This document shows, in pieces, positions 10,911 to 31,015 of a DNA stretch of 64,000 bases. Under the pieces are notes generated by a model. It worked only from the letters and a program-made list of their open reading frames with translations, was not told where the DNA came from and made no database searches. Made by a program: the position numbers and the translations under genes. This DNA comes from Alphaproteobacteria bacterium (GTDB taxonomy: Bacteria > Pseudomonadota > Alphaproteobacteria > Sphingomonadales > Kordiimonadaceae): positions 62,001 to 126,000 of the forward strand of contig SBGU01000046.1 of assembly GCA_006226495.1 (NCBI GenBank), given 5' to 3'. Each line of letters opens with the position of its first letter. Position 1 is the first letter of the stretch.

Positions 10911-11438
10911 TCAGAACGGGATTTCGTCGTCCAGATCGGCTGCGCCGGCACCGAAACCAACGGCCGCGCCACCTTGCGCGCCGCCACGGCCACCGCCAAA
11001 ACCGCCACCCGAGGACGGACCGCCGAAGTCGCCCGAGCCGTAATCGCCCTGGCTGCTGTCGCCAAAGCCGCCGCCCATGTTGTCGCCACGGCCGCCCAGC
11101 ATGGTCAGTTCACCACGGTAGCGCTGCAACACGATTTCGGTGGTGTATTTTTCCTGGCCCGACTGGTCGGTCCATTTGCGGGTCTGCAACTGGCCTTCGA
11201 CATAGATGGTCGAACCCTTCTTAAGATACTGCTGGGCAACCTTGGCCAGATTCTCGTTGAAAATGACAACACGGTGCCATTCGGTGCGCTCCTTGCGCTC
11301 GCCCGACGCGCGGTCGCGCCAGGTTTCCGAGGTCGCGATCGACAGGTTCACCACCGGCGAGCCGTCCTGCATGGTGCGGACCTCGGGGTCGCGGCCCAGA
11401 TTGCCAACCAAAATTACCTTGTTCACACTACCGGCCAT
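10911..11438 (-). CDS. ssb: single-stranded DNA-binding protein
   Basis: Binds single-stranded DNA in replication, repair and recombination and recruits partners through its tail. 175 residues: OB fold (about 1-112, starting [18 protein letters not shown]), a Gly-rich disordered linker (about 113-165), and the conserved acidic tip DLDDEIPF. A perfect LexA box lies about 107 bp upstream. As in many proteobacteria it is in the uvrA region, though here five genes lie between. Confidence 0.97.
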
Positions 11439-11544: not shown

Positions 11545-11559
11545 GTTCCTTTTTTGTTC
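11545..11559. promoter_or_regulatory. LexA (SOS) box upstream of ssb
   Basis: GTTC-N7-GTTC with a T-rich spacer, exact match to the alphaproteobacterial LexA consensus. The surrounding 11439-11758 gap (320 bp) holds this box, the ssb promoter region and the leader of the secreted-protein gene; I see no gene in it. Confidence 0.8.
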
Positions 11560-13504: not shown

Positions 13505-13909
13505 TCAATACTGGCTGGTGCCGCCCTCATACTGGCGCGCACCCGGCACCGGCGGCAGGCCGGCCCAGCGGCTGCGGGTGAATATCTCGTAGCTGATGGC
13601 AAGGCCTGACGGGTCATCCAGGGTGCCGGTGCTGACATTGTTATTGTCATTTTCGCCACCGTCCCAGGTCATTGGCGTGCCGCAGTGCGAGCAGAAACGC
13701 CGCACGGCCTTGTTGCTGGCCCGTGCGGCCCCGTCGGGGCGCGACAGCCAGCGCAACTGACCCTGCGGCACGGTGGTGAAGGTCATGAACGGCCCGCCGC
13801 CATTTTTCTGGCAATCCCGGCAGTGGCAATTGCCGGTGCGGTGCCCATCCAGATTGATTTCATAGCGCACGGCGCCACACAGGCAGCTCCCTGCTCTGAG
13901 GTCGACCAT
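13505..13909 (-). CDS. GFA-domain (CENP-V/GFA) zinc protein with a LexA-boxed promoter
   Basis: 134 residues of the GFA superfamily, named after glutathione-dependent formaldehyde-activating enzyme but mostly of unproven function. Zinc-binding cysteines are in place: Cys9 and Cys11 in SCLCGAVRY, Cys28/Cys30/Cys33 in CHCRDC, and Cys73/Cys76 in FCSHCG. Start ATG 13909 has AAGGAG 6 nt upstream. Unusually, a perfect LexA box lies 22 bp upstream of the start, next to a consensus TTGACA, so this gene is a candidate SOS member. Possible role in detoxifying a carbonyl or damaged thiol adduct (inference). Confidence 0.88.
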   Translation of the reverse strand: MVDLRAGSCLCGAVRYEINLDGHRTGNCHCRDCQKNGGGPFMTFTTVPQGQLRWLSRPDGAARASNKAVRRFCSHCGTPMTWDGGENDNNNVSTGTLDDPSGLAISYEIFTRSRWAGLPPVPGARQYEGGTSQY

Positions 13910-13930: not shown

Positions 13931-13945
13931 GTTCTATATTTGTTC
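13931..13945. promoter_or_regulatory. LexA (SOS) box at the GFA gene promoter
   Basis: Exact GTTC-N7-GTTC with spacer TATATTT. On the minus strand a perfect TTGACA -35 lies at 13965-13960, and the box covers the expected -10 region, the classic repressor position. Confidence 0.7.
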
Positions 13946-14062: not shown

Positions 14063-14077
14063 GTTCTTTTTTTGTTC
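14063..14077. promoter_or_regulatory. LexA (SOS) box upstream of uvrA
   Basis: Exact GTTC-N7-GTTC with an all-T spacer, about 105 bp before the uvrA start; matches the known LexA control of uvrA. Confidence 0.85.
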
Positions 14078-27915: not shown

Positions 27916-29061
27916 TTATCTGCGGCCGGCACCGGCACGGAGCGGTTCCTGCTCGGTCTGCATCAGGCTCCTGAGGATACCCTCGCGAATGCCCCGGTCG
28001 GCCACCCTGAGGCTCGGCACATTCCACATGCCCAGGATCGCCTCGAGGATAGCACAGCCGGCCACCACCAGGTCGGCCCTTTCTTCACCGATGCAGGGCT
28101 GTGCCGCGCGCTCGGTGTGGCTCATGTGCGCCACACGCTGCGACAGCGCATAAATATCGCGGGATTTCATCCAGGCGCCGTCGACCTTGTCGCGCTGGTA
28201 CCTGGGCAGGTTGAGATGCAGGCTCGCAAGCGTGGTCACGGTGCCTGACGTGCCCAAGAACTGGGTATGGCGCTTCCTGATCACATCACCGACCCGGTGC
28301 GCTTCCTCGAAGGCCTTCAGGTGGTTTTCGACCACGCCGACCATGGCCTGATACTGGTCGGGCGGCGGGGTCACACCCGGGCAGGCAAACCGTTCGGACA
28401 GGTTCACCACACCCCAGGGGATCGACATCCAGCCGGTGATTTCCGTGCGCCGGCCCGACAGCACACGCACCCAGATAAGCTCGGTGCTGCCGCCGCCGAT
28501 ATCGAACACCAGCGCATGTTTGTTGCCGGGCGCGATCAGGGACTGGCAGCCCATGACCGCCAGCCGCGCTTCTTCGCGCGCCGAAATGATATCCAGGTTG
28601 ATGCCGGTTTCCGCCTTCACGCGCAGCAGGAATTCGGGCGCGTTTTCCGCCACCCGGCAGGCTTCGGTCGCCACATGGCGCATGCAGGTAACGCCGCGGC
28701 GATTGATCTTGTCGGCGCAGACCTTCAGCGCCTCGACGGCGCGGTCCATCGCTTCTTCGGACAGGCGGTTGTTGGCGGAAACGCCCTCACCCAGCCGCAC
28801 GATGCGGGAAAAGGCGTCAATGACACGAAAGCCCTGGCGCGTGGGCCGGGCGATCAGAAGACGACAATTGTTGGTACCAAGATCGATGGCGCTGTATACG
28901 CCGCGCGAGAACGCGCCGCCATCGGGATAGACCTTGCGCTGCGGCTCGCGCGCCGGCGCATCCTGTTGCTGCCTGCCTCGTGCGTCCGCTTGCCTGGCAG
29001 GACGCCCCGAGCGGCTACCGGGCTTTTTGCCCTGGCGTGCCCGCCCTTCTTCCAACGACAT
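27916..29061 (-). CDS. Ppx/GppA phosphatase family protein
   Basis: 381 residues. A basic, probably disordered N-terminal tail (about 1-50) is followed by an actin-like ATPase fold: phosphate 1 loop SAIDLGTNNCRLLIA, phosphate 2 loop VFDIGGGSTELIWV and LGTSGTVTTLASL. Members hydrolyse inorganic polyphosphate or convert pppGpp to ppGpp; this short single-module form without an HD domain does not show which. Co-transcribed with rlmE. Confidence 0.9.
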   Translation of the reverse strand: MSLEEGRARQGKKPGSRSGRPARQADARGRQQQDAPAREPQRKVYPDGGAFSRGVYSAIDLGTNNCRLLIARPTRQGFRVIDAFSRIVRLGEGVSANNRLSEEAMDRAVEALKVCADKINRRGVTCMRHVATEACRVAENAPEFLLRVKAETGINLDIISAREEARLAVMGCQSLIAPGNKHALVFDIGGGSTELIWVRVLSGRRTEITGWMSIPWGVVNLSERFACPGVTPPPDQYQAMVGVVENHLKAFEEAHRVGDVIRKRHTQFLGTSGTVTTLASLHLNLPRYQRDKVDGAWMKSRDIYALSQRVAHMSHTERAAQPCIGEERADLVVAGCAILEAILGMWNVPSLRVADRGIREGILRSLMQTEQEPLRAGAGRR

Positions 29062-29185
29062 AGATTTTTCTCTTTTTCATTTTTTTTGCCGCTCCCAGCC
29101 AGGAACGGATCACTTGCTTTCTCCATACCACCCGGCGCCCTGCCCGTGCAAAACAATTGCGCCGGGGCCCTGCGAAATTTGAAAT

Positions 29186-29200
29186 GTTCTATTTTTGTTC
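29186..29200. promoter_or_regulatory. LexA box 1 of the small SOS membrane protein gene
   Basis: Exact GTTC-N7-GTTC with an A/T-only spacer, ending immediately before the -35 hexamer TTGACG (29201-29206). Confidence 0.8.
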
Positions 29201-29229
29201 TTGACGCAACAAGGCGGCAGATGTAGAAG
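29201..29229 (+). promoter_or_regulatory. predicted sigma-70 promoter between two LexA boxes
   Basis: TTGACG at 29201, 17-bp spacer, TAGAAG at 29224. LexA boxes abut both ends, so repression should be tight. Confidence 0.55.
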
Positions 29230-29243
29230 AACAAAAAAGGAAC
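29229..29243. promoter_or_regulatory. LexA box 2 of the small SOS membrane protein gene
   Basis: Exact GAAC-N7-GAAC (reverse form), overlapping the end of the -10 and the start-site region, and ending just before the GGAGG SD (29244-29248). Confidence 0.8.
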
Positions 29244-29253
29244 GGAGGCGGAC

Positions 29254-29478
29254 ATGCTGACACTTGCGCATCTTGGTACTATCCTGGCATTTGTTTTGAT
29301 CGGTGGTCTTGGCATGGCCGCAATGCAAGATGGCCTGACCACCATCTGGCGCCATCTTGTGGCCCCCAAGGGTGTCGCAAATGACGTGCAGGCCGCCGAA
29401 CCCCGGCGCCAGCCGCGCCGCACCGGCGACAGCCATGTGCCGGCCCGCGTTCGCTGGGCGCGCCCTTCCCTGCACTGA
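29254..29478 (+). CDS. small single-pass membrane protein under double LexA control (SidA-like candidate)
   Basis: 74 residues, family not recognised. An N-terminal hydrophobic helix (about residues 4-25, LAHLGTILAFVLIGGLGMA) is followed by an Arg/Pro-rich soluble tail, so it should sit in the inner membrane. GGAGG lies 5 nt before the ATG. Two perfect LexA boxes flank its promoter, the strongest SOS architecture in the window. Known alphaproteobacterial precedent: Caulobacter SidA, a tiny LexA-controlled inner-membrane protein that blocks division. There is no sequence identity claim here; the analogy rests on size, topology and regulation. Divergent from ppx/gppA. Confidence 0.75.
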   Translation: MLTLAHLGTILAFVLIGGLGMAAMQDGLTTIWRHLVAPKGVANDVQAAEPRRQPRRTGDSHVPARVRWARPSLH

Positions 29479-29659
29479 GAACAACCCGCACCCGGACCTG
29501 CCCGTCCGGGCATACCCGGCATCAGGAATTGATGGCACCCGGACCTGCCAACCCTGAACACGCCTGCGGCAAAAGCGCACAGATGTGCACTTTGGCTGGG
29601 CGGTTCACCAAATTGACATATTCTGTTGGGATAAAGTCTGAAGTTTGGACAGGTGTGCC

Positions 29660-29830
29660 AAAAAATAAGAGGCGCGGCGAACAGATCCGAAAAATGGACT
29701 GATACACCGCGCCTAATCCGAGCGAACCCCCAGGTATGCCCGGCCTCCTGCTGTAGCGGCTGCCGTGTGGCGCCTCGGTTGATCTCACCTCCCCAAGTTG
29801 ATCAACACATCTACAATTTGCCGAAGGTCG
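29660..29830 (-). ncRNA. candidate structured small RNA
   Basis: The 29479-29960 gap (482 bp) has no convincing gene. On the minus strand it shows TTGACA (29863-29858), a weak -10 17 bp on, then about 168 nt with three foldable parts: GTTGATC/GATCAAC with a loop holding GGGGAGGTG, a CCGAG..CTCGG-closed domain, and a final 8-bp stem (AGGCGCGG/CCGCGCCT) with inner pairing, followed by CTTATTTTTT. Size and terminal hairpin suit an sRNA. I could not match it to 6S, SRP RNA or tmRNA. Confidence 0.35.
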
Positions 29831-29960
29831 AAGCATCGGACAGGATTTGCCGCCTGCTGTCAAGTAGCCTTCGGAAAATAAACAATTTTATCGAAGTGCA
29901 ACAGCCGTGCAATCGGTTGTCCTGTCAGGGACCGTTTCAGGCGAAACGGATGAACCGGCC

Positions 29961-30794
29961 TTATTCGACCGGTTCGCCCTGATATTCGGACACGCGGCAA
30001 TATTGTTCGCTGGCGTTCTTGCGAATCCGTGCGCACAGGGATTCAGCTTCATCCTCGGTAATCAGCGGGCCCACGATCAGACGCAGGAAGGTGCCGATGC
30101 CGTCCTGGCTTTGCACATACACCAGCGGGGTCAGGCCATCGAGGTCGGTGCCGAAGGCGCGCGTCAGGCTGCGCCAGCCGCCGGAAACCTGGTCCTTGCT
30201 GCGGTAGGACGCCAGATGCACACCATAGAAGGTCTGGTCGGGCGCCGCCTTGTTGGCGGCCGGCGTGGCAGCAGCAACGGCCGCACCGGTGTCGGCACCC
30301 GAAACGGCCGTACCCGTGGGCGCGCTGTCGGTGGCGGGTTTCTGCTGCACGGGCACGCTGGTCTGGCGCAGGCTGTTGTCGCTCACTTCAACCGAATAGA
30401 TGCGGCCTTCGAGGCTTTTCATCTGCTGGCGGAAGGTCGAGACATCGCCTTTCAGCTTGCTCAGTTCCATCTCGGTTGCCGGGTCTTTCCTGAAATTGCC
30501 CAACTGGGCTTCAAGGGTGGCAAGCTTGGCATCCTGTTCGCGGCTGTGGCGCACCAGATCGACATACAGCCGTTCCAGCGAATTGAAACGGTCCTTCAGT
30601 TCCCGGTGGTCTTCCGAGACCGTACCGACACTGCGTTCAAGGTTGGTCTGGCGGGCTTCCACCAGGACTTCTTCCCCCTGCCACAGGCTGCCCGACGACT
30701 GGCACGCACCAAGGGTCAGGGCAAAACCGGCAATTGTTGCCCGCGAAAGCACCGCCCGAAGGCGCGTCTGGCTGGATGTTGCGATCTGTTTCAT
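29961..30794 (-). CDS. SPOR-domain lipoprotein
   Basis: About 277 residues from ATG 30794, chosen because AGGAAGGG lies upstream and a lipoprotein signal follows at once. The lipobox is LGAC (Cys near residue 29). A coiled-coil stretch (about 45-135, heptad-like LERLYVDLVRHSREQDAKLATLEAQL) leads into an Ala/Thr/Pro linker. The C-terminus has a SPOR-like domain (VHLASYRSKDQVSGGWRSL to the end), which in this family binds denuded peptidoglycan at division sites. Probable envelope or septum-associated protein. Confidence 0.8.
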   Translation of the reverse strand: MKQIATSSQTRLRAVLSRATIAGFALTLGACQSSGSLWQGEEVLVEARQTNLERSVGTVSEDHRELKDRFNSLERLYVDLVRHSREQDAKLATLEAQLGNFRKDPATEMELSKLKGDVSTFRQQMKSLEGRIYSVEVSDNSLRQTSVPVQQKPATDSAPTGTAVSGADTGAAVAAATPAANKAAPDQTFYGVHLASYRSKDQVSGGWRSLTRAFGTDLDGLTPLVYVQSQDGIGTFLRLIVGPLITEDEAESLCARIRKNASEQYCRVSEYQGEPVE

Positions 30795-31015
30795 TCTGGT
30801 ACCCTTCCTGCTCAAGCGACCGGAAACGCTGGAAATCTGCTTGTTTGCGCCAATGTTCCGGCATTCTTGCCGGCTGTATGGCCCATTCTCTCGCGACATT
30901 ATAAGCAAAAGGAATGCCAATATGGTTGCATGGCGAATATTTGCCCGGGCCGGTCTTTACAAGCGCTGCCCTGCCCCCATCTTATAAAGTCTATAATAAT
31001 ATCAGAGACAGCCGA

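What the first reader, a model, noticed from the sequence alone, without database searches (positions are those of the whole stretch)
29186..29478. Double LexA-boxed 74-residue membrane protein: possible new SOS division inhibitor or checkpoint protein
Two perfect LexA boxes bracket a TTGACG-N17-TAGAAG promoter, followed by GGAGG and a short single-pass membrane protein. The closest known model is Caulobacter SidA, an SOS-induced inner-membrane inhibitor of division, but the sequence is not recognised and the Arg/Pro-rich cytosolic or periplasmic tail is different.
Basis: partly seen in the sequence, partly recalled or inferred. Interest (0 to 1): 0.78.

Follow-up and report, generated by a model that had tools for sequence, protein, structure and literature searches.

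The report
SOS-controlled mini membrane protein, probable division brake
In marine Kordiimonas bacteria a tiny membrane protein sits behind an unusually tight DNA-damage switch that is kept across its bacterial family, and it is probably a brake that stops cells dividing while their DNA is repaired.

Summary
Two exact GTTC-N7-GTTC LexA operators (29186-29200; 29229-29243, inverted) bracket TTGACG-N17-TAGAAG ahead of a 74-codon gene (29254-29478). The genome is a Kordiimonas. The paired operator occurs exactly once per genome in 24 of 29 family genomes (reversed-pattern control: 1 of 29), each time before a 34-77-residue single-helix protein and beside ppx. Two more genomes keep it with one mismatch; in the other three no ppx orthologue was found, so they cannot be judged. 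The frame is conserved: helix motif F-x3-G-x2-G-x4-Q, pN/pS 0.10 and 0.25 in two close pairs. lexA, ssb and uvrA of this genome carry the same operator. Some genomes of five sister families carry a related LexA-boxed protein (profile probability 89-93%). No significant Pfam, NCBIfam, PHROG, phage or plasmid match; no SulA in 29 genomes. Predicted topology is N-out/C-in, the reverse of 30-residue LexA-boxed peptides from another order that resemble Caulobacter SidA in size and control. Best reading: an undescribed family of SOS-induced bitopic proteins, probably checkpoint division inhibitors acting on the late divisome. Regulation is strongly supported by sequence; the division function and FtsW target are inferred by analogy and untested.

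The parts
29186..29200 (+). LexA operator 1, GTTC-N7-GTTC, abutting the -35
   Evidence: Exact match; exact inverted pair in 24 of 29 family genomes, pair with one mismatch in G003 and G026.
29201..29229 (+). Predicted sigma-70 promoter TTGACG-N17-TAGAAG; transcription would start inside operator 2 (inference)
   Evidence: Read; -35 conserved in position in 24 of 24 family promoters; not listed by the strict consensus scan.
29229..29243 (-). LexA operator 2, inverted relative to operator 1, overlapping the last base of the -10 and the predicted start site
   Evidence: Exact match; conserved as for operator 1.
29244..29248 (+). Shine-Dalgarno GGAGG directly after operator 2; leader about 18 nt if transcription starts 7 nt after the -10 (inference)
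   Evidence: Read; purine-rich stretches between operator 2 and the start codon in many relatives.
29254..29478 (+). 74-aa single-helix membrane protein; helix residues 2-35, cytosolic basic disordered tail (predicted)
   Evidence: ORF; homologues; pN/pS 0.10 and 0.25 in two close pairs, K/R distribution; AlphaFold2 helix 2-35.
27916..29061 (-). Divergent neighbour, Ppx/GppA phosphatase (context only)
   Evidence: PF02541, E 1.1e-51; ppx motifs within the fetched flank of about 1.5 kb in all 24 exact double-box family loci.
29961..30920 (-). Convergent downstream neighbour with a SPOR domain (context only)
   Evidence: PF05036, E 9.1e-6; a similar C-terminus is visible in 7 of the 8 family loci printed (the eighth, L037, is cut short by its contig end).

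Best explanation
This is an SOS-regulon gene of Kordiimonas. LexA dimers on the two operators block both the -35 and the -10/start of a strong promoter. After DNA damage RecA filaments trigger LexA self-cleavage, and a short leader with a strong ribosome site gives fast synthesis of a 74-aa inner-membrane protein. Its single helix (N-terminus outside, basic tail inside) would use a conserved face (F13, G17, with G20 and Q25 at its edges) to dock onto a membrane partner in the late divisome, most likely FtsW or its complex with FtsI/FtsN. That would hold septal wall synthesis until repair is done and LexA recovers. Shown by sequence: operators, their conservation, a LexA gene with the same operator, gene and frame conservation. 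Predicted: promoter, topology, helix. Inferred by analogy or established SOS knowledge only: induction by damage, division inhibition and the target.
For: Operators exact. A paired inverted operator occurs once per genome in 24 of 29 family genomes, each before a small TM ORF (the 34-aa G024 version is read). G003 and G026 keep it with one mismatch; in G001, G004 and G009 no ppx orthologue was found. The own genome has one LexA match with the operator about 30 nt before its start codon; ssb and uvrA in the window have it upstream too. Protein profile hits in 23 of 29 genomes. Purifying selection in two close pairs. Conserved helix face, permutation p 0.0071. Helix 2-35. SulA 0 of 29. Published pattern: SidA binds FtsW, DidA binds FtsN (PMC4211646); YneA binds FtsW through its TM helix, and small membrane proteins that block late division are called a seemingly widespread SOS mechanism (PMC13396833).
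Against: No expression, binding, filamentation or interaction data exist for any member here. The step from LexA-controlled TM peptide to division inhibitor is analogy, and other SOS-induced small membrane peptides (DinQ; TisB, recalled) do something else. The tail is poorly conserved. The helix face does not hold every conserved residue: Q25 lies at 85 degrees and A22 at 145 degrees from its centre. Three family genomes lack the gene in the assembly, one of them (G004) rated 100% complete. The exact double operator is rare outside the family and its neighbours (1 of 387 class genomes, our own). Predicted topology differs from the SidA-sized peptides found in another order.
Confidence: 0.6

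Rival explanations
1. An SOS-induced membrane-active peptide of the TisB/DinQ sort, which lowers membrane potential and slows or parks cells rather than binding the divisome.
For: Same size class and SOS-type control. DinQ is described as an SOS-regulated toxic single-TM peptide (search listing); TisB as a dormancy-inducing membrane toxin (listing; its SOS link is recalled).
Against: No room for a long regulatory leader (about 18 nt by position). No promoter-like site on the - strand in 29050-29960 and no Rfam match in 28900-30000. The helix has a conserved glycine/aromatic face, which suits helix packing. The family sits at a fixed chromosomal locus, and the window protein has no phage or plasmid match.
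Confidence: 0.17
2. An SOS-induced membrane adaptor that modulates another envelope process, such as a protease, transporter, or the neighbouring Ppx or SPOR proteins.
For: ppx is beside the gene in all 24 exact family loci; a SPOR gene lies downstream.
Against: In the seven f4 and f8 loci fetched (L088-L094) no ppx motif was found within about 1.5 kb, so the neighbours are not obligatory partners.
Confidence: 0.18
3. A regulatory accident: the LexA boxes serve another gene or RNA, and the ORF is not translated.
For: The C-terminal tail varies in length and sequence.
Against: Frame, start position and helix motif conserved; pN/pS 0.10 and 0.25; no Rfam match.
Confidence: 0.03

Closest known systems
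SidA (Caulobacter crescentus)
   Same: SOS-induced, tiny, inner-membrane, alphaproteobacterial; LexA consensus GTTCN7GTTC (PMC4211646, abstract and passages).
   Different: 29 aa against 53-77 aa with a basic tail in 23 of 24 members (34 aa in one). Its sequence was not obtainable. SidA-sized LexA-boxed peptides from another order (A4) gave 0.5% profile probability and the opposite charge asymmetry. The double operator was found in 1 of 100 genomes sampled from that order, the seed genome itself; whether Caulobacter was among them is not known.
DidA (C. crescentus)
   Same: Small damage-induced division inhibitor with one predicted TM domain (tagged about 11 kDa).
   Different: SOS-independent, driven by DriD, and binds FtsN (PMC4211646).
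YneA / SosA / ChiZ
   Same: Damage-induced small membrane division inhibitors acting late; YneA uses its TM helix to bind FtsW (PMC13396833, passages).
   Different: From B. subtilis, S. aureus and M. tuberculosis; YneA and ChiZ have LysM domains, SosA an extended region. Here the tail is predicted cytosolic, with no recognised domain.
TisB / DinQ (E. coli)
   Same: Small membrane peptides; DinQ is SOS-regulated (listings).
   Different: Antisense-RNA-controlled toxins (DinQ: listing; TisB: recalled). No such parts were found here.

Membership tests
LexA (SOS) regulon of Alphaproteobacteria | GTTC-N7-GTTC operator over the promoter | tested here: met
   Two exact operators; conserved across the family.
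LexA (SOS) regulon of Alphaproteobacteria | LexA present and using this operator in the same genome | tested here: met
   One PF01726 match over cut-off; exact operator about 30 nt before its start codon; operators upstream of ssb and uvrA. Met by sequence; binding itself was not measured.
LexA (SOS) regulon of Alphaproteobacteria | Induction by DNA damage depending on RecA and LexA | not testable with these tools
   Needs expression data; no held paper joins Kordiimonas with LexA or SOS response.
SidA family | Sequence homology to Caulobacter SidA | not testable with these tools
   The 2011 SidA paper is not held and no SidA sequence was seen. A proxy set of 30-31 aa LexA-boxed peptides (A4) gave 0.5%.
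SidA-like small SOS division inhibitors (by function) | Small bitopic inner-membrane protein under LexA | tested here: met
   Hydropathy and charge, AlphaFold2 helix 2-35, operators. Localisation is predicted only.
SidA-like small SOS division inhibitors (by function) | Blocks division and binds FtsW/FtsI/FtsN | not testable with these tools
   Needs overexpression, deletion and interaction assays.
SulA | PF03846 domain, cytosolic FtsZ inhibitor | tested here: not met
   0 of 29 family genomes; the E. coli control rings.
Type I toxins (TisB/DinQ) | Antisense RNA and structured leader | tested here: not met
   No - strand promoter-like site in 29050-29960, no Rfam match, leader about 18 nt by position. 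An undescribed RNA is not excluded.

The most novel reading that the evidence does not exclude
Alphaproteobacteria keep at least two unrelated, topologically opposite lineages of LexA-controlled mini membrane division brakes. One is N-out/C-in and at root linked to ppx (Kordiimonadaceae and sister families). The other is N-in/C-out and about 30 aa (the order of Robiginitomaculum). If both act on the septal synthase they would press on it from opposite orientations, so SOS division arrest evolved repeatedly by inserting one helix next to the same enzyme. The double-operator promoter makes the Kordiimonas version a very tight switch.
Probability: 0.35. Interest if true: 0.72.

Novelty: new variant of a known kind. 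Interest (0 to 1): 0.55.

Why it matters
[quoted passage not shown] This gives a defined, conserved candidate with a recognisable promoter signature that can be found without any protein homology. It also gives a set of orthologues to test how a single helix can switch off septal wall synthesis.

Tried and rejected
Chance operators: rejected and its reversed control. Non-coding ORF: rejected by frame conservation and pN/pS. SulA: 0 of 29. Mobile-element origin: no tblastn match of the window protein in phages or plasmids at E 0.01; PHROG gave 5 families, each matching 1 of 11 members, best E 0.039. Pfam and NCBIfam: nothing over a cut-off for 3 members (best Pfam bits 13.8 against 22.4) or for a further 10 peptides from this and other lineages. 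Fold search of the model was not run, since a single helix would give meaningless matches. Neighbours as partners: weakened because the f4 and f8 loci fetched show no ppx within about 1.5 kb.

Results against the reading: a class-wide sample gave the promoter pattern in only 1 of 387 genomes, our own (our genome was its only Kordiimonadaceae member), and the order of Robiginitomaculum in 1 of 100. So the exact double operator marks Kordiimonadaceae and neighbours, not the class. In the order sample 45 of 396 genomes have it; the reversed control has 4 of 396. By my count of that table the 45 are f1 24 of 29, f2 2 of 8, f4 2 of 4, f6 4 of 7, f8 5 of 32 and f5 8 of 313; f3 (0 of 1) and f7 (0 of 2) have none. 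None of the 8 f5 sites has TTGAC after operator 1. Of the 13 hits in f2, f4, f6 and f8, 12 precede a small TM ORF; for G036 none was found (L100). In one search, 19 of 35 loci carry this family, 5 carry 38-40 aa TM peptides, 1 a 34-aa peptide, 4 a radical-SAM-like gene, 1 an ImuA/RecA-like ORF, and 5 were not resolved (names of the last two kinds recalled from sequence). A single-protein scan of the named genomes confirmed nothing among 598 stretches.

The first profile comparison A2 against A5 (93.3%) had one Kordiimonadaceae row (G026) in A5. Without it 92.1%, and without G024 and G025 in A2 as well 89.3%; trimmed to 36 columns 70.8%. With columns shuffled inside head, core and tail, 2 of 300 reached the trimmed score. 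Earlier, with that row in, 1 of 200 did, and one shuffle reached 89% probability. A5 rows were chosen by LexA box, position and a visible TM, not at random: of 17 non-f1 rows 12 have two exact boxes, 1 a pair with a mismatch, 1 an overlapping pair and 3 a single box. One search examined 25 of the ppx loci; 18 of the 25 have no exact box upstream of ppx; 13 loci, of which 12 had an exact box near the peptide and 1 none; A4 uses 9 of the 13 (L177, L178, L179 and L184 dropped).

Full report
Observation. The two operators, promoter, ribosome site and 74-codon ORF are present as described. Operator 1 ends at 29200 and the -35 starts at 29201. Operator 2 begins on the last base of the -10 (29229) and covers the expected start site. 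The leader would be about 18 nt.

Where it is. The window lies in a 4.32 Mb genome of 60 contigs. Relatives in its genus sit on contigs of the same length as named records of Kordiimonas gwangyangensis, K. marina and K. laminariae (L109, L110 and L122, against G010, G011 and G016), so I take the genus as Kordiimonas. NCBI places Kordiimonas in Kordiimonadales, Kordiimonadaceae. The gene lies between a divergent Ppx/GppA phosphatase gene and a convergent SPOR-domain gene.

Is the operator real here? The genome has one LexA match. An exact operator lies about 30 nt before its start codon. In the window exact operators also lie upstream of ssb (11545) and uvrA (14063) (gene names recalled from sequence). 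These are classical SOS genes (recalled), so GTTC-N7-GTTC is very probably the working operator here.

Conservation. A protein search found matches in 11 of 59 genomes, our own included, and a profile in 23 of 29 family genomes. A sequence-blind search for the inverted operator pair found exactly one site per genome in 24 of 29, against 1 of 29 for the reversed pattern. Every one of the 24 sites precedes a small ORF with one hydrophobic helix (G024, 34 aa), and every one of the 24 loci has ppx in its flank. G003 and G026 keep the arrangement with one mismatch. In G001, G004 and G009 no ppx orthologue was found (none, or only a weak paralogue), so they cannot be judged, although G004 is rated 100% complete. 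That makes 26 of 26 assessable genomes.

The protein. Members run 34-77 aa (24 members). The helix carries F13 and G17 in all 23 aligned rows and G20 and Q25 in at least 90%. Conservation has a helical period (moment permutation p 0.0071, 10,000 shuffles) centred on I10, F13, G17, M24 and L28, with G20 towards the edge and Q25 and A22 off it. No K or R precedes the helix in 24 of 24 members, and the tail has more K/R than D/E in 23 of 24. By the positive-inside rule (recalled) the tail is cytosolic. AlphaFold2 gives one helix, residues 2-35, and an unstructured tail (mean pLDDT 75.4). Two close pairs give pN/pS 0.10 and 0.25.

Beyond the family. In the order sample, 45 of 396 genomes have the pair, reversed control 4 of 396. 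By my count of that table the hits fall as f1 24, f2 2, f4 2, f6 4, f8 5, and f5 8 of 313; none of the f5 ones has TTGAC after operator 1. ppx-linked small TM genes with a LexA box occur in some genomes of f2, f6 and f7; 18 of the 25 ppx loci examined have no exact box. In the f4 and f8 loci fetched the gene is not near ppx. The profile of these 17 sister proteins matches ours over 40 columns (93.3%, or 89.3% after removing rows that could bias it), with 2 of 300 shuffles that keep the head-core-tail make-up reaching the trimmed score. The rows were picked by operator and a visible helix, so this tests sequence relatedness, not how common LexA control is. All 17 also lack K/R before the helix.

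A separate lineage. A named scan returned 35 loci. One, from a Robiginitomaculum MAG (L138), has the double operator before a 34-aa peptide. Relatives at E 0.05 or better turned up in 13 of 200 genomes of that order, 12 of the 13 loci with an exact operator near the peptide. The nine aligned are 30-31 aa, with K/R only before the helix (9 of 9), and show no profile similarity to ours (0.5%). They match SidA in size and control, but I could not compare them with SidA itself. Five Rhodobacteraceae-type loci carry yet another 38-40 aa set (profile probability to ours 1.6%).

How it likely works. See Best explanation. Regulation is well supported by sequence. The division role rests on the published pattern: SidA and DidA act on FtsW/FtsI/FtsN (PMC4211646: abstract and passages), loss of LexA in Caulobacter causes filamentation through sidA (PMC12700426: passages), and YneA uses its TM helix on FtsW (PMC13396833: passages). 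No SulA was found in the 29 family genomes, so that role is open.

Novelty. No held paper joins Kordiimonas with LexA, with SOS response, or with small protein and membrane (0 papers each). Searches on SidA, LexA and small membrane inhibitors listed no paper that by title or abstract start describes this family. The library lacks most subscription journals, so this is not proof of absence from print. I rate it a new variant of a known kind.

Noticed in passing
window 11545-11559, 13931-13945, 14063-14077: Further exact LexA operators: 11545 upstream of ssb (10911-11438, -), 14063 upstream of uvrA, and 13931 upstream of a small GFA-like gene (13505-13909, -) (gene names recalled from sequence).
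   Followed up: partly
L138, L176-L188: A mostly LexA-boxed family of about 30-aa single-TM peptides in the order of Robiginitomaculum, consensus ending W-M-M-V-L-G-G, charge only at the N-terminus; possibly SidA or a relative.
   Followed up: partly
L106, L114, L117, L126, L137: Rhodobacteraceae-type genomes carry 38-40 aa single-TM peptides (EDAxGLxALF consensus) behind the same double LexA promoter.
   Followed up: partly
L104, L112, L124, L125: In Acetobacteraceae-type genomes the double LexA promoter precedes a radical-SAM-like gene (CEHGCIYCYARP-type motif; name recalled), an apparently SOS-controlled gene of unclear role.
   Followed up: no
L101 (G177:C9:105200-108400): In one f5 genome an exact inverted operator pair, without TTGAC, lies just upstream of a 418-codon integrase-like ORF (name recalled from sequence).
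   Followed up: no
G000:C38:10359-10384: Two overlapping exact LexA operators in direct orientation elsewhere in this genome; target gene not examined.
   Followed up: no
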